A stretch of 64,000 nucleotides of DNA, from positions 62,001 through 126,000 of the forward strand of contig NZ_KI650983.1 in NCBI RefSeq assembly GCF_000506985.1, read 5' to 3'. The notes beneath the pieces are model-generated. The model saw nothing but the letters and a program-made list of their open reading frames with translations, did no database searches and was not told the DNA's origin. Source of the DNA: Advenella kashmirensis W13003. GTDB lineage: Bacteria > Pseudomonadota > Gammaproteobacteria > Burkholderiales > Burkholderiaceae_B. Made by a program: the position numbers and the translations under genes. Numbering within the stretch: the first letter of the stretch is position 1; each line of letters starts with the position of its first letter. Positions 35,131 through 63,943 of this stretch are shown here, piece after piece.

Positions 35131-35754
35131 CTACTGCAGATCACGGGGATAGCCCGCAGATAGATCCGCTGTATCTCCATTGAGCAGCATGTCATGGAAC
35201 TGCGACAATTCGCTTTTATGCAACAAATTAATCGGGCAGGCAATCTGCTTCGCATATTGTTCAAATTGTGGATTCAACACGCCGTCCCGAATTTGCTGGG
35301 AGATCCCGGCACTCGGAAAAAAGGGACGGCTCTTGACCAGAACCAGTCGTTCCGCCTTCAAATGGTTGGCCAGCCAGGCTGCGATACAATCTGATGACAT
35401 GTAGACCGAGGTTAATTCATCCGGCCGTTCCCGCATAAGAGACAACGGGACCCACACTGCTACGCCGCCACGCGCAAGCACATCACGAACAGCACTGGCA
35501 TTAACAACAGGCGTCAATTGTGGCGACAGTGCCGTTAGCATCAGACCGTACTGCGCCCTTGATAACACCAGCATGTTATGGGCGACCACGTTGTCAAACC
35601 CCCAGCGCGCTTTCATATCCCGAATAAAATCGCCGCCACGCCATCGACCCGGCACAATAATGATTCTGCCGCCGCCCAACGTCCCCAATTGTGCAAGCCA
35701 CAAATTAAGCGTACTGTCGTGCGCCAGATCACCATCAAGCTTCACTACCCACAT
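35131..35754 (-). CDS. Amino-acid-kinase-fold protein resembling MfnE-type kinase
   Basis: About 207 residues with the amino acid kinase fold layout: VVKLDGDLAHDSTLNLWLAQL, then GGGRIIIVPGRWRGGDFIRD, then AHNMLVLSRAQYGLML, then a C-terminal part with YMSSDCIAAWLANHLKAERLVLVKS. The overall pattern recalls the kinase found with methanofuran/tetrahydromethanopterin gene sets in methylotrophs. The two phosphate-binding glycine motifs are altered: the expected KxGGS reads KLDGD (5-9), and the GGG loop reads GRWRGG (36-41). Activity or specificity may therefore differ. It is the last gene of the mxa transcript, 22 nt after the beta-propeller gene. ATG at 35754 is chosen over an upstream frame start inside its neighbour. 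Confidence 0.6.
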   Translation of the reverse strand: MWVVKLDGDLAHDSTLNLWLAQLGTLGGGRIIIVPGRWRGGDFIRDMKARWGFDNVVAHNMLVLSRAQYGLMLTALSPQLTPVVNASAVRDVLARGGVAVWVPLSLMRERPDELTSVYMSSDCIAAWLANHLKAERLVLVKSRPFFPSAGISQQIRDGVLNPQFEQYAKQIACPINLLHKSELSQFHDMLLNGDTADLSAGYPRDLQ

Positions 35755-35776
35755 ACCCGCCTCCCTGCCTTTCCGA

Positions 35777-36763
35777 CTATTCTTTTTTGCACGAGGAACG
35801 CCTCGCCACGATACGCGGTCCCGCGGCGACTTCAATTTTTTCTGTCACCTTCGCCTGGTTCAAATCCACGACCGCAATGGCATCATCAAACCAGTTGGCG
35901 ACGTAGCCACGATCGCCCATAATGGCGACCCCTTCCGGATAGCGACCGACTTTGACTGAAACCGGGGTAGCACTGCCGTCAGCATTAATCCGCTGCAGCA
36001 CGCCTTTTTGCTGGGCAGTCGCCCATATTTGTTCACCATCGTCTGAAATGGCAATACCGTAAGGCATGGCCTGCATCCCGGTACGCCACACCTCTTGCAG
36101 CGAGTCCGCGGCGAGACGGCTCAGTGTATTATCCTTGACATTAGCGACATAAATCTGGCTGCCGTGCGCCGCAACGGCAAAAGGGGAAGCTCCTACCTCA
36201 ATATCGCGCAAAAGCGTCCACGCATCTGCGTCAATCACACTCACAGTAGCGCTTGCGCGGTCAGCCACAAAAAGCCGTTTGCAGGCACTATCCAGCGTCA
36301 GTCCCGCAGGCGCCTTACCCACGGCAATTCTACCGGTCTCCCGGCCGTCCTCGGCATTGAGCCTGACGACAGCATTGCCTTTCCAGTCAGATACGAAAAG
36401 CGATCGTTCATCCGCAGAGAGAGCCAGCGAGAAAGGCTCGCCCGGAAAATCATAAGTATTTTCCACCCGTTCTTCAGGCAGATTCAGGACCGATATGCGC
36501 GCGCTGTCCGGATGGGTGACATAGCCTCGCTTACCATCGGCCGAGACCGCGATGAATACCGGCTTGTCTGCCACTTCAATCCGGGAGACCACAGACCCAT
36601 TGACGGTGTCCAGTACGCTCACGGTATTGCCATCCTGGCTAACTATATAAACGGGCTCAGCGGTCGCGAGCGCCCCGGACGGACCGGGCAGCCAGCACAC
36701 TGCCAGTCCGGCACAAAGACTGATAACAAACCGCGCCGGCCCGCTTAAGTAGCCCTTGCGCAT
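35777..36763 (-). CDS. Secreted YVTN-repeat beta-propeller protein of the mxa operon
   Basis: A 328-residue protein with a signal peptide (about 1-35). Six to seven repeats of about 40 residues follow, in the YVTN/surface-antigen-like pattern (PVYIVSQDGNTVSVLDTVNGSVV, KRGYVTHPDSARISVLNL, SLFVSDWKGNAVVRLNAEDG, RLFVADRASATVSVIDA). Such periplasmic propellers often accompany PQQ-dependent alcohol dehydrogenase genes, with unknown role. It follows mxaD by 1 nt, in the slot where some mxa clusters carry mxaE; homology to mxaE could not be tested. Confidence 0.85.
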   Translation of the reverse strand: MRKGYLSGPARFVISLCAGLAVCWLPGPSGALATAEPVYIVSQDGNTVSVLDTVNGSVVSRIEVADKPVFIAVSADGKRGYVTHPDSARISVLNLPEERVENTYDFPGEPFSLALSADERSLFVSDWKGNAVVRLNAEDGRETGRIAVGKAPAGLTLDSACKRLFVADRASATVSVIDADAWTLLRDIEVGASPFAVAAHGSQIYVANVKDNTLSRLAADSLQEVWRTGMQAMPYGIAISDDGEQIWATAQQKGVLQRINADGSATPVSVKVGRYPEGVAIMGDRGYVANWFDDAIAVVDLNQAKVTEKIEVAAGPRIVARRSSCKKE

Positions 36764-36764
36764 C

Positions 36765-37298
36765 CTACTTGCCTTCTACCGTTTTCTTCAGACCGGCAAG
36801 CCCGTTCTTATAAATTGCCGTCATCGCTGCGATCGCCGATTCATCGTTCAGGTTTTCAGGCGGCTCATTGCTTGTATCCCCTCTATAGAATCGGCCGATC
36901 CATGACACCTTGCTCCCCTCGCCATCGGCCTGCACAGTCATGGTTGAGGAGTAGGAACTGACAGGCAGCGCTTCCAGATTTTCGCCATCCATCCGATAGC
37001 TGTATGAATGAGCACCTTCATCATATTCGTCCAGGCTCTCCTTGATCACGCCTTTTTCGAGTGTCAGTTCACGCACTGACCCCGGTTCATTTCCCTTGGT
37101 TGCGCTGCTTTTGCTCACATCCGGATGCCAGGCGGCAATCTCGCCGAACTGCCCGGCCGTTTTCCAGACCTTGTCAACGGGTGCAGAAATACTGACCGTC
37201 TCTTCGATTTTCTTGGGTGTCGGACCGTGGGCATCAGCAGGCGCAATGGCCACGGTACAAAAAAGTGCGGTAATCAATGTTGCTTTAATCAATTGCAT
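36765..37298 (-). CDS. mxaD: Methanol dehydrogenase-associated protein MxaD (SRPBCC family)
   Basis: Periplasmic protein of 177 residues with a signal peptide ending PADAHG. A START/SRPBCC-like domain follows (IEETVSISAPVDKVWKTAGQFGEIAAWHPDV). MxaD in Methylobacterium stimulates electron transfer between methanol dehydrogenase and cytochrome cL. The sequence GPTPKKIEETV and the position after mxaL support the call. GAAGGAG directly precedes the ATG at 37298, which decides the start over the longer open frame. Confidence 0.9.
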   Translation of the reverse strand: MQLIKATLITALFCTVAIAPADAHGPTPKKIEETVSISAPVDKVWKTAGQFGEIAAWHPDVSKSSATKGNEPGSVRELTLEKGVIKESLDEYDEGAHSYSYRMDGENLEALPVSSYSSTMTVQADGEGSKVSWIGRFYRGDTSNEPPENLNDESAIAAMTAIYKNGLAGLKKTVEGK

Positions 37299-37303
37299 CT
37301 CCT

Positions 37304-38371
37304 TCAGGAAGTAAAAGAAACAGACTTGGCCGGGTGTCCGGCGGAGCGGAACAGACCGCGACGGCGCACCCCGGAAAAGGCCGACATATAAAAAATCACG
37401 GACAATGCACACGCCAATCCAGCTAAATAGGGAGTCAGGCGGACTGGCGTTGCCACTTGATGTTTCTTCGAATGCGCCACGATGGTCTTGCTCAGATCAA
37501 TGGCACTGCCCAAGGTTGTATAGGCCAGCCCATATGCCGTTGCCAGTGATCGCAAATGGGGTTCCTTAAGCGACGAAAAATGTTCGACACCAGTTGCGGG
37601 CCGCGCGCCGTAAGGCGCATTTCGGGCATGCCAGCCTTCCCGGTTGGCTGCGTCGGCTGGAGGCGGGCCGTTGCGGTTTTCCTGTTCAACTTCATCAGCG
37701 CCAAAAAAACCGATTTGGTGCCCCGTCTCATCAAATTTGGGAATGGGCGACAGTTTTGCCCCCCCCACACCCACGATTACGCCCTCTGCAGCAGAGGCGT
37801 CAGCCCGCGGGGATGGCGATCTATTCAGCGTCTGCGCCCGGACTTCGGCTTCGCCCTGCATCATCATGTGGCCGATTTGCGTCTGCGCCGCAGGTAAAGG
37901 CGGCGCCTCATGGCCATCGGTCATATAGACCACGCTCAAATTCATACCTTTTGCCATCTCCAGCGCGGACTCCAGACCCTTGGTAATGTAACTGTCTCCC
38001 TCCCAGGCCATGCGCCAGTCCAGCTCCGCGATGGTGTCCGACAAGGATGCGAAGTTTTCACACACCTCTATCGGTTCAAGCAGCAAAAATGCCCGCCTCT
38101 CGGAGAAGACAGCCAGGGCGACACGGCTGCCGCAAGGCAGGCGAACGAGTGTCTGCTGCAGTCGTTGCCGGACCTCGTCAAGCCGGCTATGCAAGTGTCC
38201 TTCAGGACCATAATCGCGCACGTTCATGCTGCCGGTAATATCGACGACGAACAGGACTTCCGGTCTGTCCTGTTGCGTGCGCCACTGAGGCTGAAAACTG
38301 GCGATGACGCTCAAACAGAAGGCCGCAAGCAGTAACCAGAATCGATAATCCAGGACTGAAGGCAGTCTCAT
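37304..38371 (-). CDS. mxaL: Methanol dehydrogenase maturation protein MxaL (VWA domain)
   Basis: Membrane-anchored von Willebrand A-domain protein of 355 residues. An N-terminal helix is followed by the MIDAS-like motif DITGSMNVRD (Thr in the second position, as in MxaL proteins). VVYMTDGHEAPPLP supplies the second metal-site Asp, and a second helix lies near residue 325. MxaA, K and L are needed for calcium insertion into methanol dehydrogenase in Methylobacterium. The start overlaps the mxaK stop by 4 nt (ATGA). Confidence 0.88.
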   Translation of the reverse strand: MRLPSVLDYRFWLLLAAFCLSVIASFQPQWRTQQDRPEVLFVVDITGSMNVRDYGPEGHLHSRLDEVRQRLQQTLVRLPCGSRVALAVFSERRAFLLLEPIEVCENFASLSDTIAELDWRMAWEGDSYITKGLESALEMAKGMNLSVVYMTDGHEAPPLPAAQTQIGHMMMQGEAEVRAQTLNRSPSPRADASAAEGVIVGVGGAKLSPIPKFDETGHQIGFFGADEVEQENRNGPPPADAANREGWHARNAPYGARPATGVEHFSSLKEPHLRSLATAYGLAYTTLGSAIDLSKTIVAHSKKHQVATPVRLTPYLAGLACALSVIFYMSAFSGVRRRGLFRSAGHPAKSVSFTS

Positions 38372-39015
38372 GGCAGCCCCTTGGGCAGGCCCGGCAAATC
38401 CGTCCAGAGACGTTTCGGTTTTTCCGGCGATTCGTCTTCTTCGGAAACCTCTGCAGGCGGCAAATCGCGCACCAGGCGTGAAGCGATATCAAGGTTATAT
38501 CTGGCATCCCAGAAACTGGCGTCCAGTCTTAAGGCACGAACATAATATTCCTTGGCGAGCCTGACCAGCGACGGGGCTTCTTCTGTCCTGGTGCTGCCGA
38601 GCAACTCCAGAGCCTGACGCAATCGCGCGTTGCCCATGTTATAGAGTGACCAAACGGCAATGTCGGTCGATTTTTCGGAGGCAACCGTTCCGTCCTGCAC
38701 CAGCGCCTGTGCGGCAAGCCGCTCTACCCACGGCAGCGCCTCATCCAGACGGCCCACGGCGGCCAGAAAACGCAGGCGCGCAAACGATACCTCCGGCGAG
38801 GCCTGTTCGACCACGACGATGTCCTCTCTGCGCTCCAGTGCATCGATGGTCTTATTATCAGACCTGGCCCCATACAATTGCATCAGTGTCGCGAGCAGCG
38901 CGCAAAGGGTCAGGCCCAATCCGAGCCACAGGATCCAGGCAAACGCCCGGCCACCCACCCGACGGTACAATGGCCACCGGTTCAGACTACGCAGTGAGCT
39001 TGGATTGCCGGCCAT
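38368..39015 (-). CDS. mxaK: Methanol dehydrogenase maturation protein MxaK
   Basis: A 215-residue protein with one N-terminal membrane helix (about 24-48, FAWILWLGLGLTLCALLATLMQL). A TPR-like helical region follows (SLYNMGNARLRQALELLG, AKEYYVRALRLDASFWDARYNLDIA). It sits between mxaC and mxaL, as in the canonical mxa order, and overlaps mxaC by 29 nt. It belongs to the AKL group implicated in calcium loading of MxaF. Confidence 0.85.
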   Translation of the reverse strand: MAGNPSSLRSLNRWPLYRRVGGRAFAWILWLGLGLTLCALLATLMQLYGARSDNKTIDALERREDIVVVEQASPEVSFARLRFLAAVGRLDEALPWVERLAAQALVQDGTVASEKSTDIAVWSLYNMGNARLRQALELLGSTRTEEAPSLVRLAKEYYVRALRLDASFWDARYNLDIASRLVRDLPPAEVSEEDESPEKPKRLWTDLPGLPKGLP

Positions 39016-40036
39016 GCCTGCTCCTTATCGAACCTGTACTGACCACTTTTTGCGCACAATGCACCGCGAGCAGCAATAACAGCACGGCAGCCGCAAGCGC
39101 GCTCAAATACCCCGACAGTTCGCGACGCGGGATATGTTCTGTGTACCGTAGGGGCGCCTTCTCGCGTTTGTCAATTTCCGCGATCGCAGCACCCACCTCC
39201 TGCGCATTCTCTGCTTCGAAAGCGCGATAGTTGATCCCGAGCGATTTAAAGAAAATATCAAGATGACGCTCGGGCATTGCCTGAGGGGTGTCCTCGGACG
39301 GATCTGCAGGCGCATCCCAGATTCCTGCGGCACCGGCTGTGCGCAGAAAAAGCCAGTACAACCGTACAGGTCGGGCCGCCACTGCCTTTTTCAGTGCATT
39401 TTGCACACGCATGTCAATAACCGCCGCCCCGTCGGATACGAGCAGAATAACTCGGGATGCCAGCGGATCATTGTCATTGTCGAATGCCGACAGCGCCATT
39501 GCGAGCCCGCGTCCAATATCGGTATACGAAAGACCGGGACGATCGATTGCGTCAATAGCGGCGTTGACAGCATCAGGCTTGTCGCTTAACGGTAATACGA
39601 ACAGGGGCATGGTCGAGAAGGCCACCATCCCGATGCGGTCCTGTTCGCGTTCATCGACAAACCCTTTGAGCAAACGTTTGGCTGCAGCCGCCTTGGATTC
39701 CTCCTGACCGGTCGGCATCCTGCCCGCAAAGCTGCTATTCATGCTTGAGCTGCGATCGATCAGTAAAACCAGATGCGCGCCCGCGCCGATTTTCTGAACA
39801 GTCCCGCCTTTCAAGTGCAATCCGGCCATGCAAAGAACAAGCGCAAGCAATGCAACACAGCCAAGGATTCTTAACCCCCAGTCGACCATTTCGGAAAAAG
39901 GATCCGTGCCCACGCTTCCCAGCCAGGGCCAATCGGACTGCCGGCGCGGCCGCAGAATAAAAGGCAGCAGGGCCAGCGGCAGCAGCCACAACAAATGAGG
40001 CGAGTCAACTGACAGGTCTCGCAACAGCCCGTTCAT
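38987..40036 (-). CDS. mxaC: MxaC (VWA-domain methanol oxidation protein)
   Basis: A 349-residue membrane protein with N-terminal helices (about 12-25 and 53-72) and a VWA domain. The complete MIDAS motif is DRSSSMNSS, followed by SYTDIGRGLAMAL (Thr ligand) and LVSDGAAVID (Asp ligand). A last helix lies near 310-330. It is a batA-like accessory protein of the mxa operon. The 4-nt overlap with mxaA points to coupled translation. Confidence 0.88.
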   Translation of the reverse strand: MNGLLRDLSVDSPHLLWLLPLALLPFILRPRRQSDWPWLGSVGTDPFSEMVDWGLRILGCVALLALVLCMAGLHLKGGTVQKIGAGAHLVLLIDRSSSMNSSFAGRMPTGQEESKAAAAKRLLKGFVDEREQDRIGMVAFSTMPLFVLPLSDKPDAVNAAIDAIDRPGLSYTDIGRGLAMALSAFDNDNDPLASRVILLVSDGAAVIDMRVQNALKKAVAARPVRLYWLFLRTAGAAGIWDAPADPSEDTPQAMPERHLDIFFKSLGINYRAFEAENAQEVGAAIAEIDKREKAPLRYTEHIPRRELSGYLSALAAAVLLLLLAVHCAQKVVSTGSIRSRHGRQSKLTA

Positions 40037-40956
40037 AAGCCTCTCCTTTCGGTCGCCGCAAGACGGCTGGCTATATCCAGTAATCTTGCCGCCGTCAGCC
40101 CCGGATCGGTCTGTCTCGGAGCACCACCAAAAAAGGTGCTTGCCGAAGCCGTAAAGAAAAGCGCAAGGTCATCCTGCACGGGCGCAAATCGCGGATTGCG
40201 GGCAACGAAGGCACTGACATCACTGGACATCAGACGCGTCTGGTTGCTTGCATCCAGTGCGCGATGCAGTTCAATCAGACTGCGGGAGTAAGATTCATGA
40301 TCTGCACGCTTCAGATTCTTTCGGATGGCTCGATAGGCACGGGCAAAAGGACGGGCCTGGCGCTGGTGAAAAGGCCATCTTGAATAATGCATCGAGAGTA
40401 GCAGCAGCCAGAGCAGGACGAGCACAATCAGCCCGCCAGCCCTTTGCCATAAGGGCTTTTCATCTATCCGTCCGGCCGGCACATCCGGCCGGATCTGTTC
40501 CGACACTTCCGTGCCCGATTGCGCCACGCCGCGCAGGGGCGACATGTAAAACACCTGAGGCGGAACCCTAATCGTCTGCTCTGACGCACCGTCGCTGAAA
40601 AGCAGATCAAGCGCCGGGATTTCGCGACGGTTCACATCCAGCGGGACATAAAAGGTTTGGTAATTCAGTGTCAGCGTATAAACGGTATCTGCACCCGAAC
40701 CACTTTGCTCAACGACAACCGAGCGCAAATCGAGCCAATAGTTCAGGGAACCCGGAACGGGGAGCGAGGACTGTTGCAGCGTCGCATTCGGACTGTCAAT
40801 CCGGATGGTAACCGGCACCACATCGCCAAGCAGCCAGCCGGCAGGCCGCAGCGGAGCAACCTGAACACGAAGGTCTGCGGCCTGTCCCTGGGAGCAGACT
40901 GCGACCAGAAAAAGCGCGACGATCAAGCGGAGAAAAGGCCAAATGCGTCCTCTCAT
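40033..40956 (-). CDS. mxaA: MxaA (methanol dehydrogenase calcium-insertion accessory)
   Basis: A 307-residue protein with a signal peptide or N-terminal helix (ending SQGQAADLRV), a periplasmic beta-rich region (VQVAPLRPAGWLLGDVVPVTIRID), one membrane helix near residue 175-190 (GGLIVLVLLWLLLLSM), and a cytoplasmic helical tail. Genetic work in Methylobacterium links MxaA to calcium incorporation into methanol dehydrogenase. It is in canonical position between mxaS and mxaC. Confidence 0.87.
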   Translation of the reverse strand: MRGRIWPFLRLIVALFLVAVCSQGQAADLRVQVAPLRPAGWLLGDVVPVTIRIDSPNATLQQSSLPVPGSLNYWLDLRSVVVEQSGSGADTVYTLTLNYQTFYVPLDVNRREIPALDLLFSDGASEQTIRVPPQVFYMSPLRGVAQSGTEVSEQIRPDVPAGRIDEKPLWQRAGGLIVLVLLWLLLLSMHYSRWPFHQRQARPFARAYRAIRKNLKRADHESYSRSLIELHRALDASNQTRLMSSDVSAFVARNPRFAPVQDDLALFFTASASTFFGGAPRQTDPGLTAARLLDIASRLAATERRGL

Positions 40957-40964
40957 TGCATCCC

Positions 40965-41843
40965 CTATCGCTCAAGCAGATACGTGTTCAAGGACTCAAT
41001 ATCCAGCGTTCGCCCCACCCGAAAAGGCCGATTGACATAGCGTGCGAACAAGGCGTCCTGACGCACCCGGCGATGTTCGCTCTCCTGCAGCCAGCGTTGC
41101 TTTAGCGATGACCGGACAATTGCAAACCGGCGCTGACCGGTTTCCAGGTCAGCCAGTTCAGTGAACCCCCAGTTGGGCAAATCGGCAACGGAATAGTCCT
41201 CCAGCACCACAGGTATCACATCATGACTGGAAATCGCAGCAAGAATCCGCTCCGTCTGTTGCTCTGGAAAAAGGAAATCTGAAAATAGAAAGACCAGCTT
41301 GCGGGGTCCCTGTAAATACTCGGCGGCGGTCTCCAGCGCGGCCGCGCTATCGGCGGTGGGCAACAGCGTTCTGAGCCGGGAAACAATATCGCTTACAACA
41401 GCACGATTGCGATTGGAGGGCAAACTGATCTCTTCCAGAATATCCCCGCCACAGGCATACAAACCAAAACTGTCTCCATTGCGATGCGCCGCGCGAGCCA
41501 GCAAATCGCAAAACTGACCGGCCACGTCCAGCTTACTGCGATTATCGTCACGCCAGGCCATGGATGCAGACACATCGACAAGCGCATATACCTGCACCGA
41601 CAGGCGTGGCTGATACTCTTTTACATACCACTGTCCGTACGGATCGCGCATGCTGCGTCGCAAGTCCAGCCGACGCATGTCCGGCGCCCGTTCAAAGGGA
41701 ACAAGCGCGCGAAACAGACCTGCTGCTGCGCCGCCGGCACCACGATGACTACCGGGATACACGCCCTGTGCGCGCCAGCGCAACGAATAATCAATCACAC
41801 CGCTGTCGCCGGCCTGCTCTCTCGCGGCACTCACGGTACTCAT
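40965..41843 (-). CDS. mxaS: MxaS (DUF58 family)
   Basis: A 292-residue DUF58 protein with a VWA-like core: YALVDVSASMAWRDD carries the MIDAS motif and KLVFLFSDFLFPEQQ the later acidic site. DUF58 proteins pair with MoxR ATPases in metalloprotein or complex assembly. The ATG at 41843 overlaps the mxaR stop codon (ATGA). A longer open frame to 41876 would lie inside mxaR and is less likely. Confidence 0.88.
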   Translation of the reverse strand: MSTVSAAREQAGDSGVIDYSLRWRAQGVYPGSHRGAGGAAAGLFRALVPFERAPDMRRLDLRRSMRDPYGQWYVKEYQPRLSVQVYALVDVSASMAWRDDNRSKLDVAGQFCDLLARAAHRNGDSFGLYACGGDILEEISLPSNRNRAVVSDIVSRLRTLLPTADSAAALETAAEYLQGPRKLVFLFSDFLFPEQQTERILAAISSHDVIPVVLEDYSVADLPNWGFTELADLETGQRRFAIVRSSLKQRWLQESEHRRVRQDALFARYVNRPFRVGRTLDIESLNTYLLER

Positions 41844-42874
41844 GGCACCGCCACTTTGGAGAAAACCTGGCGACACATTTGGCTGACGATATCCTCCCTG
41901 CGCATTTCATAAATCGGGTTGAGGAATATGCGGTGGCCCACGGTTTCATAGAAGACTTCGCGCACATCCTCAGGCAGAACCATGTCCCGCCCTTCCAGCC
42001 ACGCCAGAATTTTGGCGGCTCTCACGAGCACCGCCATTCCGCGCGGGCTGGCGCCCCCTTTGATGAGCCTGGCGGTATCGACGCCAGCAATGTCGATACC
42101 CGCCTGCTGCGGCTCTCTGACGGCGTCCCACAGAGTCACGACATAGTCCTGCAGCGTCCGACTGGTTTGAACATGGTTCTGAATGTGTCTGGCAACGTCA
42201 TTGAGCCGGGTGTAATCCAAGACCCTGTGGTCGACTTGCTCAATTAACAGATCGACATCGTGATAACGTGTATTGAAAATCAGTTCCCGGCGCAGTTGCC
42301 TGTCCCGCGGGGCCTGTACGGGTATTTCCATGAAGAACCGGTCGCGGGCCGCAGCCGGCAACTCGAAGGTTTCTTCTTTTTCGATCTGATTGCGATCCGC
42401 AAAAACCTGAACATTGGGCAGCTGAATATCACGATTGAACGCGTTGACCGCCTTTTCTGCCATGAGCCGGAGCAATAGCGAATGCACCTGCGGTCGGGCA
42501 CGATTGATTTCATTGAAGAAAAAAACCGAAATATCCTCGCCGTGCGACAGTAACGGTCCGGCTTCGACGCGCGGCTTGCCCTCTTCATTCAGATAGGTAT
42601 GGTAAATCAGATCTGATGGCATCAGGTCGATCGTACCTTCCACGCGACTGTATGCACCGCCAATGGCCCGCGCTACTGCCCTGAGCATTAACGTTTTGCC
42701 AACGCCGACATCCCCTTCCAGCAGGACATGGCCTCTGGCAAATATTGCAATCGTAATTAACCGGATAGCGCGTGTCTGCCCGATAGCCGCTTTCGCGACC
42801 TCCTGCTCAAACAACAACGCATGCTGGCGCCATTGCACCAGATCAATCGCGTCTTCGGCAGTGCCTTGAATCAT
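41840..42874 (-). CDS. mxaR: MxaR, MoxR-family AAA+ ATPase
   Basis: Cytoplasmic AAA+ chaperone of 344 residues needed for active methanol dehydrogenase; MxaR is the founding member of the MoxR family. Walker A is GDVGVGKT (54-61), Walker B-like FFFNEINRARPQVHSLLL, and a conserved FADRNQIEKEETFELPAAARDRFFMEI segment (sensor 1 and arginine finger) follows. ATG at 42874 gives the usual N-terminus. A stem-loop at 42954-42984 separates it from mxaI. Confidence 0.93.
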   Translation of the reverse strand: MIQGTAEDAIDLVQWRQHALLFEQEVAKAAIGQTRAIRLITIAIFARGHVLLEGDVGVGKTLMLRAVARAIGGAYSRVEGTIDLMPSDLIYHTYLNEEGKPRVEAGPLLSHGEDISVFFFNEINRARPQVHSLLLRLMAEKAVNAFNRDIQLPNVQVFADRNQIEKEETFELPAAARDRFFMEIPVQAPRDRQLRRELIFNTRYHDVDLLIEQVDHRVLDYTRLNDVARHIQNHVQTSRTLQDYVVTLWDAVREPQQAGIDIAGVDTARLIKGGASPRGMAVLVRAAKILAWLEGRDMVLPEDVREVFYETVGHRIFLNPIYEMRREDIVSQMCRQVFSKVAVP

Positions 42875-42953
42875 GAAATTCTTCTCCCGACGGCCGTCGC
42901 ATGTTTCTGCGTTATGACAATCACACGCCGGCTTTTTGATGCCTCCCTTCCAG

Positions 42954-42984
42954 CCATCCCCGGACGACACCCGGCCGGGGATGG
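42954..42984 (-). promoter_or_regulatory. Intercistronic stem-loop between mxaI and mxaR
   Basis: A perfect 10-bp stem (CCATCCCCGG at 42954-42963 with CCGGGGATGG at 42975-42984) and an 11-nt loop. No T tract follows on the minus strand, so it is not an ordinary terminator. It may stabilise the upstream mxaFJGI message or lower expression of the accessory genes. Confidence 0.6.
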
Positions 42985-43005
42985 GCACATCGACCGGACA
43001 AAGCC

Positions 43006-43311
43006 TTATGAAGCGGGAATTTTTTTGACGTCATATTCAAATTTGCCGGTTTTTTTGAAGTTATCCACGCGCAATTTGTTGCGTTTTTCCATCGCCTGGA
43101 TACTTTCCTGCTGCTTGGCAACCTCCTTGGGGTCATGCTTGGGATCGTACTTTGATCCTTTCACCTGGTCCGGGTAGCCAGGTTTGGGCTCCCAGCAATT
43201 GCCTGGCGCCTTGCACTTCGTACCGTCATAGGCCATTGCGTTCAGTGAACCCAGGGTCATCGCTGCAGCCCCGGCCAGCACGAGCGCCGAACGTACTATA
43301 GAATGTCTCAT
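43006..43311 (-). CDS. mxaI: Methanol dehydrogenase small subunit MxaI
   Basis: Beta subunit of the periplasmic alpha2-beta2 methanol dehydrogenase, 101 residues as precursor. A signal peptide ends SLNAMA, and the mature protein starts YDGTKCKAPGNCWEPKPGYP with the two disulfide cysteines. A lysine-rich helical part follows (DPKEVAKQQESIQAMEKRNKLR), which wraps the alpha subunit. The presence of MxaI marks the calcium enzyme; lanthanide XoxF enzymes lack it. GAGGAG upstream of ATG 43311 fixes the start. Confidence 0.97.
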   Translation of the reverse strand: MRHSIVRSALVLAGAAAMTLGSLNAMAYDGTKCKAPGNCWEPKPGYPDQVKGSKYDPKHDPKEVAKQQESIQAMEKRNKLRVDNFKKTGKFEYDVKKIPAS

Positions 43312-43425
43312 CAGTTTCTCCTCTTTTGTCATACCTGCCAGACGGCGACTGCTGGCCGAACAGCGCAGGTTCCGATTTTCCCGCGTTTGAAACGCAAGAT
43401 CCGCTATCCACCCATCAGGGATGGA

Positions 43426-43947: not shown

Positions 43948-44005
43948 ACTGTGGTTATCTCCTGAAATTTTTTCGTGTCTTGCGAAACATACCGGCCGAC
44001 CGCGC

Positions 44006-44890: not shown

Positions 44891-44991
44891 ATTTGTCTCC
44901 ATTATCCCGGCCTGTTTGCCGGTTCTTTTTAATCTGCCTATCCAACCACCCGCCATTTCCCTCAGAAACGGCGGGTGTACCCTTGCTGCCG

Positions 44992-48273: not shown

Positions 48274-49740
<1,467 letters not shown>

Positions 49741-49742
49741 AG

Positions 49743-49802: not shown

Positions 49803-49843
49803 GCAGGCAAAAATTACCGCATTTCACGACAGGAAAAAACATC

Positions 49844-50263: not shown

Positions 50264-50334
50264 TGGCCTTGCCCGGGCGGCACCGGGAAATCAAGCCGCC
50301 TGACGAAAATCACTGCAAATAAAAGGAGAGCATG

Positions 50335-51303: not shown

Positions 51304-51304
51304 C

Positions 51305-52069: not shown

Positions 52070-52105
52070 ATACCGATATCCATGATTCAGAAAGAGGAGA
52101 CGATC

Positions 52106-53188: not shown

Positions 53189-53296
53189 GCCGGCCAGATG
53201 CAAAGCGGTACGCCGAACGCCCTCCCGCTGACGGCCCGCTATCGCGCGATGCCGGTGCAAACCATTTTATTTATTATTCATCCAGGGGCCATCATT

Positions 53297-54178: not shown

Positions 54179-54190
54179 GGAGAACACAAG

Positions 54191-56212: not shown

Positions 56213-56269
56213 CCCTTTGTTCACCGCGTCCGTGTTGTTCACGGACGCCGCCCTTCCAAGGAGATCAAC

Positions 56270-57325
56270 ATGGCTCTCGTTTCTTTACGTCAATTGCTGG
56301 ATCACGCTGCAGAACATGATTACGGCATTCCCGCCTTCAATGTCAATAATCTGGAACAGATCCAGGCCATCATGCAGGCGGCAGAAAACCGGGACAGCCC
56401 TGTCATTCTGCAGGCCTCGGCCGGTGCCCGCAAATATGCCGGCGAAGCGTTCCTGCGCCGGCTGGTTGAAGCCGCTATCGAATCCTGGCCCGATATCCCG
56501 GTGTGTATGCATCAGGACCACGGTGCCAGCGCGGCCGTGTGCCAGGCGTCCATCCGTTCCGGTTTTTCAAGTGTGATGATGGATGGTTCGCTGCTGGCCG
56601 ACATGAAAACCCCGGCTTCGTATGAATATAATGTTGCGGTCACGCGACAGGTTGCCGACATGGCGCATTGCGTGGGTGTTTCGGTAGAGGGCGAACTGGG
56701 CTGCCTGGGTTCGCTGGAATCGGGTCAGGCAGGAGAAGAAGACGGTTCCGGCGCCGAGGGCGTCCTGTCGCATGAGCAATTGCTGACCGACCCGGAGCAG
56801 GCGGCCGACTTTGTGGCCAGAACCGGCGTGGATGCTCTGGCCATTGCCATCGGCACCAGCCATGGCGCCTATAAATTTACCCGCAAGCCCACTGGCGATA
56901 TTCTGGCGATTGATCGTATCCGCGCCATCCACGAGCGCATTCCCAATACCCATCTGGTCATGCACGGCTCCTCATCGGTTCCGCAGGAATGGTTGCAGAT
57001 CATCCGCGAGCATGGCGGTGACATTCGCGAAACCTATGGCGTACCGGTGCAGGAAATTTGCGAAGGCATTAAAAACGGTGTGCGCAAAGTCAATATTGAT
57101 ACTGATATTCGTCTGGCCATGACAGGTGCTATGCGTCGCAGCATGATGCAAAACACATCTGAATTCGATCCAAGAAAATTCTTCAAAGAAGCCACGGCTG
57201 CCGCCAGACAGATTTGTGAACAGCGTTTTGACGCTTTCGGTTGCGCAGGTCGCGCCTCCGGCATCAAACCGGTTCCGCTGGAGCAGATGGCACGCATCTA
57301 TGAACAACAGGCGGTCGCTGCCTGA
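56270..57325 (+). CDS. cbbA: Fructose-bisphosphate aldolase class II
   Basis: Zinc-dependent aldolase forming fructose or sedoheptulose bisphosphate, 351 residues. Metal ligands are in CMHQDHGAS and the later HGAYKFT and [30 protein letters not shown] is the conserved C-terminal region. It is the last gene of the cbb transcript and is followed by a hairpin terminator. AAGGAG is eight bases upstream of the ATG. Confidence 0.97.
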
Positions 57326-57482: not shown

Positions 57483-58595
57483 TCAATCGAATGTGACGAC
57501 CGAACGGATGGACTTGCCTTCATGCATCAGATCGAACGCTTCGTTGATCTTTTCGATGGGCATGACATGCGTGATCAAATCATCGATATTGATCTTGCCT
57601 TCCATATACCAGTCCACAATTTTGGGCACATCGGTACGGCCACGTGCGCCGCCGAAAGCAGACCCCTGCCAGACGCGGCCGGTCACCAGCTGGAATGGCC
57701 GGGTGGAAATTTCCTGACCTGCGCCGGCAACACCGATAATGGTGCTCTTGCCCCAGCCCTTATGGCAGGATTCAAGCGCCTGGCGCATGAGGTTGACGTT
57801 CCCGATACACTCAAAGGTATGATCGGCGCCGCCCTTGGTCAGACTGACCAGATACGGCACGATCTCGCCTTCGACTTCTTTCGGATTGACAAAGTGCGTC
57901 ATGCCGAATTTGCGTGCCAGCTCTTCACGCGCCGGGTTGATGTCCACACCGATAATCATATCGGCGCCCGCCATGCGAGCCCCCTGCACCACGTTCAGCC
58001 CAATGCCGCCCAGGCCGAACACAATGACCTTGTCGCCCGGCTGAACCTTGGCCGTATAGATCACGGCGCCGACACCGGTGGTGACGCCGCAGCCGATATA
58101 GCAGACTTTTTCGAAAGGCGCATCTTCACGGATTTTTGCCAGGGCAATTTCCGGTACGACGGTATAGTTGGAAAAGGTCGACGTGCCCATGTAATGGAAC
58201 ACATCCTTGCCGTTCAGTTTGAAGCGGCTGGTGCCGTCAGGCATCAGGCCTTTGCCCTGCGTTTCACGAATGGCGCCGCAAAGATTGGTTTTGCGGGACA
58301 GGCAGAATTCGCAGTTGCGGCACTCTGGCGTATAAAGCGGAATCACGTGGTCGCCGGGTTTGAGCGTGGTGACACCCGACCCTACTTCCACGACCACACC
58401 GGCGCCCTCATGACCCAGAATGGCCGGAAAAATACCTTCCGGATCGTCACCGGACAGTGTGAACATGTCGGTGTGACACACACCCGATGCCTTGATTTCC
58501 ACCAGAACCTCAAAGGCGCGCGGACCGTCCAGCTGAACAGTCTCGATCGTCAGCGGTGCCCCCGCTTTGGTGGCAACAGCGGCTTTTGTATCCAT
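57483..58595 (-). CDS. frmA: S-(hydroxymethyl)glutathione dehydrogenase (class III alcohol dehydrogenase)
   Basis: Oxidises the formaldehyde-glutathione adduct to S-formylglutathione, 370 residues, zinc-dependent. The catalytic zinc Cys is in ASGVCHTD and GHEGAG supplies the His. The structural zinc site is [15 protein letters not shown]. The NAD fold is [36 protein letters not shown] is typical of class III enzymes. It follows gfa by 15 nt, so the pair forms a formaldehyde-detoxifying and energy-yielding unit downstream of methanol dehydrogenase. Confidence 0.95.
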
Positions 58596-58610: not shown

Positions 58611-59180
58611 TTAAGATGCATGTTTTGATTTTGCAACATGCGTTGCGATGACGTCCATTAGTGCCGGCGACAGGCAATCATAGGGTGGCAGTCCCAGTTC
58701 GTTCAAGCGCGCCCGAATCCCGCTCATCTCGGCAGGATCTGTTCCGGTTTCGATGATAGAAGATACGAAAGCGGCAAATGTAGGCGCAGACCAGCCGGTA
58801 TCGGGAGATCTCTCGGTATGGATGAAATCCAGTCCATAAAATGGGTGCTGGGTATTTTCAATCCGCCCGTACATATGCACACCGCAACCGCTGCATGCAT
58901 GTCGCTGAATGGCGGCCGACTCGTCTACCACCTTGAGTTTGTCCGCATGGGCAGTAACCTGAACCGCTTCTTTCGGTACGACGGCAACCTGGGAAAACAG
59001 GGCGCCGGTCGGCCGCCAGCATTTGGAACAACCACAAAGGTGATTATGAGCCGATTGCGAATTGATTGTGACTTCGACCCTGTCAGTCTCGCAATCACAT
59101 ACCAGCTTGCCGCCGGTAAAATTATTGTCTGCCCTTGCCTGAACACCATTGTTAACGGCGGGATGGATATTGTAACTCAT
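58611..59180 (-). CDS. gfa: S-(hydroxymethyl)glutathione synthase (Gfa)
   Basis: Glutathione-dependent formaldehyde-activating enzyme, 189 residues, close to the Paracoccus Gfa length. Zinc cysteines are visible in [27 protein letters not shown] and [16 protein letters not shown]. It promotes condensation of formaldehyde with glutathione, although its enzymatic role has been debated. It is transcribed ahead of frmA, as in Paracoccus. Confidence 0.93.
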
Positions 59181-59428
59181 ATGTGTCTCCGGATTGGTTA
59201 TGGATGGGCGTTAGTTTGTACTCAAGCAACTTCCATGCCAGGCGGGAGAGCATTGTGCAGAACCGGCAAAGCATCCATCAGACGCAGGCACAGCCAAGCC
59301 AAAACCGCGACGGGACAAGGTTCCATTCTTTCCGGCATCAACCAGGAGTTGTTCAGAATACGATACAGGCTGTTCCATCCCCTTGGCATTGCACCGGCAA
59401 CCGGTACACTTGCGCACCGTCGGCAGAC

Positions 59429-60403
59429 TTATTCAGGCGACGAGGAAATATCAATCAGGGCCTGGCGCAGGCCCGCCAGCAGCAGCGGATCGGCAGGTGT
59501 ATGTGTGCCGCCCGGCACCCAGCGCATATCGGCCTGACGCAGATAAGGCAGCAGCAAATGGATATTTGCCGCAGGACAAATCCAGTCATGCGTACCGTGC
59601 ACCACGGTTACCGGTGTGCCGACCCGTTCAAGCCGGGACAGCAGCGACGGCAGCTCGACAAAGGCCTGGTGATGCAGATAGTGAGCCTGGATGCGAAACT
59701 TGTGAATCCTGCGCATCATTGCCTGAGTCTGCTCTTCATGACTCTGCTGCTTTTCACTGTACTTCGACGCGCGACGATCCGCCTGATCGTTGCGCTGCAT
59801 CATGGCTGCCATGATACCGTCTTCATACTGACCCCAGCGCTGCGCGATATCACGTTGACGATCCTGGTCAGAACCAAGCAGGCCGGAGGCCAGCGTCTCG
59901 AACACCGATGCCTTTTCCGCTGGCGTCATGGTTTCTGTCAGCCTCTGCCAGGCCTGGGGGACCAGGGCGCGCAGATCCTGAAAAAACCATTGCAATTGCA
60001 ATCGGGACGGTAAAAACACGCCACGCAGCAGCAAATGACGAATGGTCTGCGCATGCTCTGCAGCATAGGCCAGCGCCAGGAACGCGCCCCAGGAACCGCC
60101 CAGAACAACCCATTCGGAGATGGCCAGATGCTGGCGCAAACGTTCGATATCGTCTACCAAATGGCCCGTGGTATTATGCTGCAGACTGCCGGTAGGACGG
60201 CTTTTGCCGCAACCGCGCTGATCAAAGAGTACGACCCGCCAGCGCGTCAGATCGAACCAGTCCAGCATGCCGGGATAACAGCTGCTGCCGGGTCCGCCAT
60301 GCAGGACAACCACTGCCGGAGCCTGCATATTGCCATATTGGGCATAATACAAATCGTGATCGTCGGGCGTTTTTAAGAAACCTTGAGAGAGAGGCGAGTT
60401 CAT
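59429..60403 (-). CDS. Proline iminopeptidase (S33 family)
   Basis: Alpha/beta-hydrolase peptidase of about 324 residues that removes N-terminal proline. The oxyanion loop is VVLHGGPGSS, DQRGCGKSRP is the family signature, and the nucleophile elbow is LGGSWGA. The Asp and His are in HGTHDWICP and VPGGTHTPAD. ATG at 60403 (MNSPLSQGFLKT) is preferred; 60415 is possible. The gene is divergent from pqqABCDE, with about 260 bp between its start and pqqA. It may be an ordinary peptidase or might serve PqqA processing. Confidence 0.88.
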   Translation of the reverse strand: MNSPLSQGFLKTPDDHDLYYAQYGNMQAPAVVVLHGGPGSSCYPGMLDWFDLTRWRVVLFDQRGCGKSRPTGSLQHNTTGHLVDDIERLRQHLAISEWVVLGGSWGAFLALAYAAEHAQTIRHLLLRGVFLPSRLQLQWFFQDLRALVPQAWQRLTETMTPAEKASVFETLASGLLGSDQDRQRDIAQRWGQYEDGIMAAMMQRNDQADRRASKYSEKQQSHEEQTQAMMRRIHKFRIQAHYLHHQAFVELPSLLSRLERVGTPVTVVHGTHDWICPAANIHLLLPYLRQADMRWVPGGTHTPADPLLLAGLRQALIDISSSPE

Positions 60404-60503
60404 TTCAAAAAACATTCCTGACAGCAATTGGACCGGTGGCGCACATTGACCACGAATTGCGCACGCGATCGGATACCGGAATTTTTTTGCAGGTTAAAGC
60501 GCC

Positions 60504-60662: not shown

Positions 60663-60737
60663 ATGAAATGGACAACCCCCGAGTTTTGCGATCTGCGTTT
60701 CGGCTTTGAAATCACGATGTACATTGCCAACCGCTAA
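60663..60737 (+). CDS. pqqA: PQQ precursor peptide PqqA
   Basis: A 24-residue ribosomal precursor of pyrroloquinoline quinone. The sequence begins MKWTTPEFCDLRFGFEITMY and ends IANR. The conserved Glu16 and Tyr20, three residues apart, supply all the carbon and nitrogen of PQQ after cross-linking by PqqE. AAAGG lies about 9 nt upstream. It is followed by pqqBCDE on the same strand. Confidence 0.97.
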   Translation: MKWTTPEFCDLRFGFEITMYIANR

Positions 60738-60800
60738 TCTGCAAATACTGCTCTTACCATGCGGCGTTGGCGTGAGCCAGCGCCGTTTTGCATGCTACCT

Positions 60801-61730
60801 ATGAAAATTCTTGTCCTTGGTTCTGCCGCTGGCGGCGGATTCCCGCAGTGGAACTGCAACTGCCCGAATTGCGATGGCATCCGTCGCAACACCATTCGCG
60901 CCATTCCCCGAACGCAATCGTCCATTGCCGTTTCAGCCGATGGCGTTCAATGGCTGCTGGTCAATGCCTCCCCCGATATTCTCAAGCAAATTCAATCGAA
61001 TCCTGCCCTGCAGCCTGCACGCAGCATACGCGACACCGGTATCACATCTGTGATATTAATGGACGCACAGATTGATCACGTCACCGGACTGCTGATGTTG
61101 CGCGAAAGCGGCACGCCGCTACCGTTATACTGTACACAGCCTGTCTGGCATGACCTGAGCAGCGGCCTGCCTCTGACGCAAGTGCTGTCTCATTATTGCG
61201 GACTGGAGCACCAGCCCATTGACGTCCAGGCCAACCGCTTCGGCCCGCCTCTGCGTCTTGAACACCTGCCCGATATCACGATCATGCCGTTCCCCTTATC
61301 GAGCAAGGCGCCCCCCTACTCTCCGAACCGCGCCAATCCGCAGACGGGCGATAATATCGGCCTGCTGATGACAAATGAAAAAACCGGCAAGACCCTGTTC
61401 TATGCACCGGGACTGGGTCAGATGGAGCCGCTGGTGCTTGAAGCCATGTCGCGCGCAGACTGTATCCTGGTGGACGGCACCGTGTGGACCGAAGACGAAA
61501 TGATTCGTCTTGGCCTGTCGCGCAAGACCGCTGCGCAAATGGGTCATCTTCCCCAATCAGGACCGGGCGGCATGATCAGCGTGCTGGACTCGCTGGGAGA
61601 TGATAAGCGCAAGATTCTGATTCATATCAACAACAGCAACCCCATCCTGAACCAGGATTCGCAGGAAGCCGCGGTGCTGCAGGCACATGCAATAGAAATT
61701 GCCGTTGACGGCATGGAGATCACATTGTGA
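60801..61730 (+). CDS. pqqB: PQQ biosynthesis protein PqqB
   Basis: Metallo-beta-lactamase-fold hydroxylase of PQQ synthesis, 309 residues. It opens [24 protein letters not shown]. Metal and substrate regions include [15 protein letters not shown] and the C-terminal [20 protein letters not shown] at 60801 is the family start; earlier in-frame ATGs at 60759 and 60792 lack support. The stop codon overlaps the pqqC GTG. Confidence 0.96.
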
Positions 61731-62488
61731 GCATCACCCTTTCCAGCCTCGCAGGCTATAACACCAAACAGACCGATCCCAATGCCTGGGATCGTACCGA
61801 ATTTGAGCAGCAACTGCGCGCCAAAGGTGCCGGCTATCACATTCATCATCCCTTCAATGTCAGGATGAACAGTGGCCAGCTATCGGAAGAAGATATCCGT
61901 TGCTGGGTTGCCAACCGCTTTTATTATCAGATCAACATTCCTTTGAAAGACGCGGCGGTCATGTCCAACTGCCCCGACAGAGAAACCCGTCGACGCTGGA
62001 TCCTGCGGATGCTGGACCACGATGGATTCGACGACAACGAAGGGGGCATCGAGGCATGGACGCGCCTGGGCGAGGCGGTCGGCATCAGCCGCGAAGAGTT
62101 GTGGTCACTGAAACGCGTCGTTCCGGGCGTGCGCTTTGCGGTGGACGCCTACGTCAATTTCGCCCGCCAGGCGCCATGGCAGGAGGCGGTCTGCTCGTCA
62201 TTGACTGAAATGTTTGCGCCCAAAATTCACAAAGATCGACTGGCCAACTGGCCCGGTCATTACCCCTGGATCGAAAGTGATGGGCTGGCATATTTCCGCA
62301 GCAGGATTTCGCTGGCCGAGCGGGATGTCGAGCACGGCCTGGAAGTCACGCTGGATTACTTTACCACTCGCTCACAACAGGCACGGGCACTGGAAATCCT
62401 GCAATTCAAACTGGATATTCTCTGGTCCATGCTGGATGCGATAGAAAAAGCCTGCGACCTGAGCCACAGCGAGGTGGACCATGCCTGA
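61727..62488 (+). CDS. pqqC: Pyrroloquinoline-quinone synthase PqqC
   Basis: Cofactor-free oxidase that performs the final ring closure and eight-electron oxidation, 253 residues. The all-helical family sequence is clear: [44 protein letters not shown] and [25 protein letters not shown]. It starts with GTG overlapping the pqqB stop (GTGA). The end overlaps pqqD by 8 nt, so B-C-D are translationally coupled. Confidence 0.97.
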
Positions 62489-62753
62489 TTCAGCTCCTTT
62501 GCCTGAAAAGCCGCTGCTATCCCGCCTGTTTCGCCTGCAGTATGAAAAGGCGCAAAATGCGTACGTCCTGCTGTATCCTGAAGGCATGGTCAAACTCAAC
62601 GACAGCGCCGCAGAAATTTTGCGTCGATGCGATGGCGAGCGCACGCTTGCGCAGATTGTTGCCGATCTGGAAAACAGTTTTGCCACGACAGGCCTGCAGA
62701 ATGATGTAGAAGCGTTTCTGCAAGCGGCCCAGGAGCGTGGCTGGATCAAATAG
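62481..62753 (+). CDS. pqqD: PQQ biosynthesis peptide chaperone PqqD
   Basis: A 90-residue chaperone with the RiPP recognition element fold, which binds PqqA and presents it to PqqE. Typical sequence: [48 protein letters not shown]. It is a free-standing protein here, not fused to PqqC as in some methylotrophs. Confidence 0.96.
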
Positions 62754-62761
62754 AGGTCATC

Positions 62762-63943
62762 ATGGATATGCCCCAAGCCGTTCAGGCCAAACCACCGGCC
62801 AGCGTTGCCCCGCCACTCTGGCTGCTGGCCGAGCTGACCTACCGCTGCCCGCTGCACTGCGTGTTCTGTTATAACCCGGTAGACTACGCCAGCAATACGC
62901 ACGAACTGACCACGGCACAGTGGATCGATGTCATGCAGCAGGCGCGCGAATTGGGCGCGGCACAACTGGGTTTTTCAGGCGGTGAGCCCCTGTTGCGCGA
63001 TGACCTGGAAATATTGATTGCCGAAGGCCGCCGGCTGGGTTTCTATACCAATCTGATTACCTCGGGCGTGGGCCTGAAACGTGAACGCCTGGCGGCATTC
63101 CGGGAGGCCGGACTGGACCATATCCAATTATCCTTCCAGGATTCGACCCGGGAGATGAATGATTTTCTGTCGCACACCAAAACGTTTGATCTGAAATCGC
63201 GCGTCGCCGCCATGATCCGTGAATTCGAGTATCCCATGGTTTTGAATGTGGTACTGCATCGCTATAACCTGGATCATATCGAACGCATTATCGACATGGC
63301 CGATCAGATGGGCGTCGAATACCTGGAATTGGCCAACACCCAGTATTACGGCTGGGGGCTGATCAATCGACAACAGCTTCTGCCCGACCGGGCGCAATTG
63401 GAGCGCGCCGAAGCCGCGGTCAACCGCTATCGTGAAAAGCACGGCAACCGCATGCGTGTTTTGTTTGTCGTGCCCGACTATTTTGAAACCCGGCCCAAGG
63501 CCTGTATGAACGGCTGGGGTTCGGTTTTTCTGGCGGTTTCGGCCGATGGCTCTGCCCTTCCCTGCCATGCGGCCAAAACCATTCCCGGCCTGCAATTTCC
63601 CGATGTCACGCAGACGCGCCTGCATGATATCTGGTATCACAGCGACGCTTTCAACCAGTTTCGCGGCGACGACTGGATGAAAGACCCCTGTCGCAGCTGC
63701 CCGGAAAAAAACCGTGATTTCGGCGGCTGTCGCTGCCAGGCCCTGGCGCTTACAGGAGACGCTGCCAACGCGGACCCGGTCTGCGACAAATCGCCCCATC
63801 ACCATGTCATCACCGATATGATCACTCAGAAATCAGCCGTGGCAATCGAGGAAAAGCCACTGGTATTTCGTAACGACGCCAATTCACGAGCGCGTTCAGG
63901 GTTACACAATGCCACGGCCACCGGCGACAAATTGTCACACTGA
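62762..63943 (+). CDS. pqqE: PqqA peptide cyclase PqqE (radical SAM)
   Basis: Radical S-adenosylmethionine enzyme forming the Glu-Tyr carbon-carbon bond in PqqA, 393 residues. The radical SAM cluster is Cys29, Cys33 and Cys36 (YRCPLHCVFCYNP), with GFSGGEPLLRDD following. The C-terminal SPASM cysteines are visible in ALPCHAAKTI and CRSCPEKNRDFGGCRCQA. It begins 8 nt after pqqD. The 57 nt after its stop show no further feature. No pqqF protease gene is present in the window. Confidence 0.97.
   Translation: MDMPQAVQAKPPASVAPPLWLLAELTYRCPLHCVFCYNPVDYASNTHELTTAQWIDVMQQARELGAAQLGFSGGEPLLRDDLEILIAEGRRLGFYTNLITSGVGLKRERLAAFREAGLDHIQLSFQDSTREMNDFLSHTKTFDLKSRVAAMIREFEYPMVLNVVLHRYNLDHIERIIDMADQMGVEYLELANTQYYGWGLINRQQLLPDRAQLERAEAAVNRYREKHGNRMRVLFVVPDYFETRPKACMNGWGSVFLAVSADGSALPCHAAKTIPGLQFPDVTQTRLHDIWYHSDAFNQFRGDDWMKDPCRSCPEKNRDFGGCRCQALALTGDAANADPVCDKSPHHHVITDMITQKSAVAIEEKPLVFRNDANSRARSGLHNATATGDKLSH

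What the first reader, a model, noticed from the sequence alone, without database searches (positions are those of the whole stretch)
35131..63943. Contiguous methanol-autotrophy block: mxa, cbb, gfa-frmA and pqq side by side
Within 29 kb the window carries a calcium-type methanol dehydrogenase operon, a complete RuBisCO core operon with activase and regulator, glutathione-linked formaldehyde oxidation genes and PQQ synthesis. Methylotrophs usually scatter these modules. The clustering would let one segment convert methanol to cell carbon through CO2, and would make the trait easy to transfer as a unit. Genes still required from elsewhere are S-formylglutathione hydrolase, formate dehydrogenase, cbbE, cbbG and cbbK.
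Basis: partly seen in the sequence, partly recalled or inferred. Interest (0 to 1): 0.8.

Follow-up and report, generated by a model that had tools for sequence, protein, structure and literature searches.

The report
Swappable methanol enzyme beside Calvin genes
This bacterium keeps most genes for turning methanol into cell carbon in one inherited stretch of DNA, and among its close relatives the methanol-oxidising enzyme in one fixed slot of that stretch is a calcium type in some species and a rare-earth type in others.

Summary
In detail: window 35131-63943 carries an mxa (calcium methanol dehydrogenase) operon, a form I cbb operon, frmA-gfa and pqqABCDE. S-formylglutathione hydrolase and formate dehydrogenase lie elsewhere in the genome and Fae is absent, so methanol -> formaldehyde -> CO2 -> Calvin cycle is a sound reading, untested by growth or expression.

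Transfer of the block as a unit is not supported inside the genus. All 6 large-genome members (window's own included) hold the cbb/frmA-gfa/pqq block between the same neighbours, and block and flank trees agree. Such clusters are also published (Sinorhizobium meliloti pSymB).

The unexpected part is the slot between yjcH and cbbR. It holds mxa in 3 of 6 species and a lanthanide-type xoxF module in 3, and the types cross the species tree: mxa species G095 is sister to xox species G071. Flank, block and unlinked rpoB data each reject a xox clade. A sigma-54-like promoter and an upstream repeat beside cbbR are kept under both cassettes. None of 13 dehydrogenase-bearing family genomes found has both types. 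I read this as a stable methanol-autotrophy locus with an exchangeable dehydrogenase slot.

The parts
32863..34894 (-). actP-yjcH (SSF symporter + DUF485): left neighbour of the slot, conserved in all six large-genome members of the genus
35131..35835 (-). MfnE-like amino-acid-kinase gene; present in both cassette types of the genus, tree splits by cassette type
35777..36763 (-). beta-propeller gene (provisional mxaE)
36765..42988 (-). mxaRSACKLD accessory genes (VWA, DUF58, AAA, SRPBCC proteins; names by gene order)
43006..43332 (-). mxaI, MDH small subunit (PF02315)
43426..44079 (-). mxaG, cytochrome cL
44006..44956 (-). mxaJ
44992..46899 (-). mxaF, Ca-type methanol dehydrogenase large subunit, motif DEWDYAG
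47015..47030 (-). sigma-54-like promoter TGGTATGGATATTGCT before mxaF; equivalent site kept in all six large-genome members of either cassette type
47191..47206 (-). upstream repeat GTCACGCATGCGTCAC just past the cbbR stop, kept under both cassette types; possible activator site
47225..48136 (-). cbbR, LysR regulator; right neighbour of the slot
48277..57325 (+). cbbL, S, X, Z, F, P, T, A: form I RuBisCO and Calvin cycle operon
57483..58595 (-). frmA, zinc-dependent alcohol dehydrogenase fold, taken as S-(hydroxymethyl)glutathione dehydrogenase
58611..59180 (-). gfa, S-(hydroxymethyl)glutathione synthase
59225..59240 (-). sigma-54-like promoter TGGCATGGAAGTTGCT before gfa-frmA, conserved in six large-genome members
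59429..60427 (-). alpha/beta hydrolase gene, beside pqq in both genera
60666..60722 (+). pqqA (matched part)
60759..63943 (+). pqqB, C, D, E

Best explanation
The segment is a methanol-autotrophy locus: PQQ-dependent methanol dehydrogenase makes formaldehyde, Gfa-FrmA with unlinked FGH and FDH oxidise it to CO2, and the cbb operon fixes the CO2. Within this genus everything from cbbR to pqqE is inherited vertically. The dehydrogenase is an exchangeable cassette in the slot between yjcH and cbbR, either mxa (Ca) or xox (Ln). The cbbR-side edge, an upstream repeat plus a sigma-54-like promoter, stays in place under either cassette: it reads into mxaF in mxa genomes and into mfnE-cytochrome b561-beta-propeller in xox genomes. 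Shown: gene content, fixed position, conflict between cassette type and species tree, conserved promoter-like parts. Inferred: exchange by homologous recombination through the shared flanks; control by the sigma-54 activator beside pqqE; metal availability as the selective force; growth on methanol.
For: Six of six large-genome members have the same order actP-yjcH-[slot]-cbbR-cbbLSXZFPTA-frmA-gfa-hydrolase-pqqBCDE-sigma54 activator; slot = mxa in G000, G095, G152 and xox in G071, G134, G151. The motif was read as DEWDYAG in G000 and G095 and DEWDYDG in G071, G134 and G151. Flank tree (12,532 columns) and block tree (15,576 columns) both give G000,(G152,(G134,(G151,(G095,G071)))) with 100/100 on the three inner branches; a xox clade is rejected, p-AU 5.8e-6 and 1e-41. 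rpoB, unlinked, also rejects it, p-AU 7e-4. At least 2 changes of type. mfnE splits by cassette type, not species. Edge: repeat and sigma-54-like site in six of six (repeat with 1 mismatch in G152, 2 in G151); exact sigma-54 matches 2 per stretch in each of six against 0.02-0.04 expected. Fae 0 of 8, FGH 8 of 8, FDH 8 of 8. No family genome seen with both MDH types.
Against: No expression, growth or metal data. The sigma-54 pattern was loosened after I had seen the mxaF sites, so its chance figure flatters; an unadjusted scan of the window was not above chance. The near-identical G095/G071 tracts beside the slot (actP, end of cbbR) are suggestive only: 9 of 82 circular shifts do as well, and yjcH, the nearest left gene, does not share them. 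2 of 28 flank and block genes (yjcH, gfa) do not pair G095 with G071 and 3 tie (counted). Only six species. Distances fit vertical descent of mxa as well as exchange.
Confidence: 0.75

Rival explanations
1. The ancestor carried both mxa and xox modules at this place and each species later lost one; no exchange took place.
For: mxa distances among G000, G095, G152 are a constant 1.60-1.63 times the block distances, as vertical descent predicts, and the xox tree (G134,(G151,G071)) also follows the species tree. Coexistence in one genome is usual in proteobacterial methanotrophs (PMC12482762, section 10 part 1 read).
Against: Needs up to six independent losses, always leaving exactly one (my count on the tree); 0 of 13 MDH-bearing family genomes keeps both at the cut-offs used; one search printed no remnant of the other module in any slot (tblastn at 1e-5; short remnants could be missed).
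Confidence: 0.2
2. The whole 29-kb block is a recently transferred unit.
For: Patchy in the family: MxaI over cut-off in 6 of 151 genomes; no MDH in the four small-genome members of the genus; in Pollutimonas the cbb-GSH-pqq part lies at another chromosomal place; similar clusters sit on plasmids in other genera; third-position GC of mxa is lower than the flank's.
Against: Same place in six of six large-genome members, congruent trees, ordinary overall GC; no integrase among the family-annotated ORFs of 23.7-64 kb.
Confidence: 0.15
3. G095 alone is the oddity: one recent import of mxa from an unsampled relative that left the line after G152, with no general exchange.
For: Without G095 the tree needs one change; the distances fit such a donor.
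Against: Pollutimonas shows the same split by another route: xox beside gfa in G109, G028, G087, but mxa at a separate locus and no xox there in G061.
Confidence: 0.3

Closest known systems
XoxF-CBB methanol cluster of Sinorhizobium meliloti pSymB (PMC12628762)
   Same: MDH, frmA, gfa, form I cbb operon and pqq genes in about 28.5 kb; GSH route plus Calvin cycle
   Different: Ln enzyme, different gene order and orientation (cbb read F-P-T-A-L-S-X instead of L-S-X-Z-F-P-T-A), on a megaplasmid; no exchange of MDH type in the passages I read
mxaFJGIRSACKLDE operon of Xanthobacter, Ancylobacter, Methylobacterium
   Same: Same gene order; MxaF 76-80% identical
   Different: 0 of 80 named mxaF loci (best 80 of 379; genomes near the window's may be left out) have cbbL in the flank held, at most 10 kb a side
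Methylophilaceae ecotypes with MxaFI or only XoxF (PMC4109929)
   Same: Close relatives differ in MDH type
   Different: There strains carry xoxF copies throughout and mxa sits in a genomic island in one; here one type stands instead of the other in the same slot (passages read)
Paraburkholderia phymatum pBPHY01 xox-cbb region
   Same: xoxF, sigma-54 activator (50%), mfnE-like gene and cbb genes in about 25 kb
   Different: No mxa, gfa, frmA or pqq hit in the 50 kb read

Membership tests
Ca-dependent MxaFI methanol dehydrogenase module | MxaF with Ala two residues after the catalytic Asp (position recalled; extra Asp of XoxF in PMC12628762) | tested here: met
   DEWDYAG
Ca-dependent MxaFI methanol dehydrogenase module | MxaI small subunit, MxaG, MxaJ and RSACKLD accessory genes | tested here: met
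   homologues in the same order in named mxa loci
XoxF-CBB methanol cluster (S. meliloti type) | Ln-type XoxF with DYD | tested here: not met
   not found in the window genome; met in the slot of G071, G134, G151
XoxF-CBB methanol cluster (S. meliloti type) | GSH formaldehyde genes, form I cbb operon and pqq side by side | tested here: met
XoxF-CBB methanol cluster (S. meliloti type) | induction by methanol and carbon assimilation as CO2 | not testable with these tools
   needs cultures
Recently acquired genomic island | integrase, odd composition, trees at odds with the species | tested here: not met
   (third-position GC of mxa somewhat low); direct repeats at the edges were not tested
sigma-54-controlled operon | -24/-12 site of the TGG-N10-GC class upstream and an enhancer-binding activator (consensus recalled) | tested here: inconclusive
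   conserved sites; activator gene L010:10084-12114; that this activator or sigma-54 acts on these sites is inference

The most novel reading that the evidence does not exclude
The slot is a two-allele locus kept across species: Ca and Ln dehydrogenase cassettes have coexisted since before the crown of the genus as alternatives behind one fixed promoter edge, swapped between species by recombination in the flanks and held by changing lanthanide supply, a 'lanthanide switch' made by gene exchange instead of by regulation within one genome.
Probability: 0.3. Interest if true: 0.8.

Novelty: new variant of a known kind. Interest (0 to 1): 0.58.

Why it matters
In a survey of 179 methanotroph genomes most proteobacterial ones carry both mxaF and xoxF5 and can switch between them, and a single gammaproteobacterium is named as lacking xoxF (PMC12482762, section 10 part 1 read; that survey covers methanotrophs, not methanol users such as these). 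Here sister species differ in dehydrogenase type at one locus while the rest of the pathway is constant. That is a natural experiment on what calcium against lanthanide dependence costs and gains, and on how dehydrogenase type spreads. Eight paper searches listed no report of such an in-place alternation; subscription papers and preprints were not searched.

Tried and rejected
Recent transfer of the whole block: rejected for the genus. Plus-strand ORF 59183-60013 as a gene: dropped after (amino-acid identity far below DNA identity); the same reason removed R13366 from later tables. The H4MPT route: no Fae in 8 of 8, so the MfnE-like kinase is unlikely to serve methylofuran synthesis. A scan for sigma-54 sites with 2 mismatches over the whole window was not above chance (18 found, 28 expected); the later pattern was fitted to sites already seen, and at 1 mismatch it also gives many sites with no such place (for instance 8 in G109, 1 expected). 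The case rests on position and conservation. Recombination tracts beside the slot: not significant. A first mfnE tree had two rows read in a wrong frame and was redone. The mxa tree used 10 of 13 cassette genes (mxaA, mxaE, mfnE left out), its block used 14 genes without cbbZ and the hydrolase, and its xox tree used xoxF and xoxJ only. dS values of -1 are failed estimates and were not used. The number of genomes with both MDH types rests on XoxF at 1e-120 in 151 genomes and MxaF at 1e-60 in 10 members of the genus; a broken second gene could be missed at these cut-offs. MxaI in 399 order genomes gave 7, the window's own and 6 of one other family; their cbb linkage was not checked.
Full report
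Observation. The window lies at G000:C5:62001-126000 of a 4.85-Mb genome in 12 contigs. Genes left of the block that have a family match are housekeeping or ordinary: polA, leuS, holA, proA, hslO, then ftsB, eno, an MFS transporter, kdsA, pyrG, sir2, tRNA-Asn, actP-yjcH. To the right come a GAF/AAA+/Fis sigma-54 activator, a sodium symporter, a TauD-type dioxygenase and a sugar-type ABC transporter. An alpha/beta hydrolase gene on the minus strand, 59429-60427, belongs to the block.

Completeness. FGH (TIGR02821) and formate dehydrogenase (TIGR01591) are over cut-off in 8 of 8 genomes examined and lie outside the block in the window genome. Fae is found in 0 of 8. The glutathione route therefore looks like the way to CO2. 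The serine cycle, the RuMP cycle and cbbE, G, K were not searched.

Genus. Ten genomes of the genus are held. Six, the window's own included, have a methanol dehydrogenase of this kind and 4.3-4.9 Mb; four have none and 2.6-3.3 Mb. In the six the order of the genes tested is the same from ftsB to the sigma-54 activator. The slot between yjcH and cbbR holds mxaFJGIRSACKLDE-mfnE in G000, G095, G152; in G071, G134, G151 it holds xoxF-xoxG-xoxJ and a 251-aa gene, facing mfnE-cytochrome b561-beta-propeller. Active-site motifs agree with Ca type in G000, G095 and G061 and Ln type in G071, G134, G151, G109, G028, G087; G152's was not printed, its MxaF is 93% identical to the window's.

Trees. Flank genes and block genes give one and the same tree, G000,(G152,(G134,(G151,(G095,G071)))), the three inner branches 100/100; holding the xox genomes together costs 123.4 and 122.5 log units (p-AU 5.8e-6 and 1e-41). 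rpoB, far away, gives p-AU 7e-4, though several of its own branches here are weak. The cassette type therefore changed at least twice at one place. Gene by gene, 23 of 28 flank and block genes have G095-G071 as the closest pair of G095, G071 and G151, 3 tie (MFS, frmA, pqqB), and 2 (yjcH, gfa) do not (my count from the rounded table).

Age of the cassettes. mxa distances (10 genes) are 1.60, 1.63 and 1.61 times the block distances for G000-G095, G000-G152 and G095-G152, and 1.45 to 1.55 times for the three pairs with G061. G095's mxa is thus as old as descent from its common ancestor with G152 predicts; a donor from an unsampled branch above that ancestor would look the same. The xox tree follows the species tree too. 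mfnE, found in both cassettes (59-63% identity between types), forms one clade per cassette type (mxa 94/96, xox 100/100), joined to each other inside the genus and outside G061 (98/96, whose outgroups have long branches). Two cassette lineages therefore seem to have run side by side through several speciations. That fits a long-lived two-type polymorphism, a double-carrier ancestor with repeated loss, or exchange with unsampled relatives.

Edges. On the cbbR side, G095 and G071 are alike up to just past the cbbR stop and then part. Two islands of likeness remain in all six: a repeat GTCACGCATGCGTCAC after the stop (exact in four, 1 mismatch in G152, 2 in G151) and a sigma-54-like site TGGTAYGRATATTGCTT. 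The first gene after them is mxaF in mxa genomes and mfnE in xox genomes. A second exact sigma-54-like site precedes gfa-frmA in six of six; a weaker one (1 mismatch to my pattern) precedes xoxF in three of three and in the three Pollutimonas-genus xox genomes. Exact matches expected by chance are 0.02-0.04 per stretch, but I had fitted the pattern to the mxaF sites first, and at 1 mismatch chance sites are common. The activator beside pqqE is 65% identical to the one beside mxa in G061 and 40-41% to those in the xox clusters of G109 and G028; the activator of the xox genome G071 behaves the same way. This hints that mxa was the older state here; it is not proof. actP and the end of cbbR are unusually alike in G095 and G071 (gene dS 0.07 and 0.13 against about 0.3; pqqD, short and distant, also has 0.13), but this placement is not significant by circular shift (9 of 82).

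Wider picture. MxaI is over cut-off in 6 of 151 family genomes. A XoxF query at 1e-120 hits 10 of 151: five MxaF and five XoxF carriers, none with two hits. With G151, G152 and G138, whose mxaF hit is in two pieces, that is 7 mxa, 6 xox, 0 both. In the Pollutimonas genus (g29) G109 has cbbRLSXFP, GSH genes, xox and pqq in one 26.5-kb run; G028 and G087 have GSH genes, xox and pqq without cbb in the 60 kb read; G061 has cbb, GSH and pqq there but its mxa on another contig. In G044, G037 and G138 mxa lies between frmA and pqq and no form I cbbL was found (the hit in G138 is a 33% relative). Of 80 named mxaF loci (the best 80 of 379) 0 have cbbL in the flank held, which is under 10 kb for some contigs.

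Known work. PMC12628762 (passages read) shows the XoxF-CBB pathway by growth, labelling and transcripts and describes the S. meliloti cluster. I saw that cluster's gene order on L205; Phyllobacterium sp. T1293 has pqq, xoxF5 and cbb in about 24 kb of one plasmid, next to H4MPT genes. PMC12482762 (passages; section 10 part 1) finds both MDH types in most proteobacterial methanotrophs and names Methylogaea oryzae as having mxaF and no xoxF. PMC4109929 (passages) reports MDH type differences between close strains. PMC6028718 (passages) gives background. Searches listed no paper on in-place alternation of mxa and xox.

Judgement. The block itself is a further case of a published kind of cluster. 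The alternation of Ca and Ln dehydrogenase cassettes at one slot behind one conserved promoter-like edge, with the rest of the pathway constant, is the new part, and it rests on six species and sequence evidence alone.

Noticed in passing
window 35131-35835: MfnE-like kinase kept in seven mxa or xox loci of two genera whose seven genomes have no Fae; its relative in Azoarcus KH32C (L207:29199-29798) sits in a methylofuran/H4MPT gene cluster. Its role without H4MPT is open.
   Followed up: partly
window 59429-60427: Alpha/beta hydrolase gene beside pqq in both genera and evolving fast (65-67% DNA identity between G000 and the five other large-genome members); substrate unknown, FGH exists elsewhere.
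   Followed up: partly
G151 locus L177-L179: Many interrupted frames in conserved genes (actP, cbbL, cbbT, kdsA), probably a noisy assembly.
   Followed up: no
G000:C1:2323478-2324683 and G095, G071, G134 equivalents: A second gene about 30% identical to CbbL, probably a RuBisCO-like protein.
   Followed up: no
L206 (Paraburkholderia phymatum pBPHY01): xoxF, a sigma-54 activator, cbbPFXSL and an mfnE-like gene within about 25 kb of a plasmid of another Burkholderiales family.
   Followed up: partly
G138:C2:287071-292806: mxaF, mxaR, mxaS (and pqqB at 298520-299439) hits come in several pieces: decay or assembly error.
   Followed up: no
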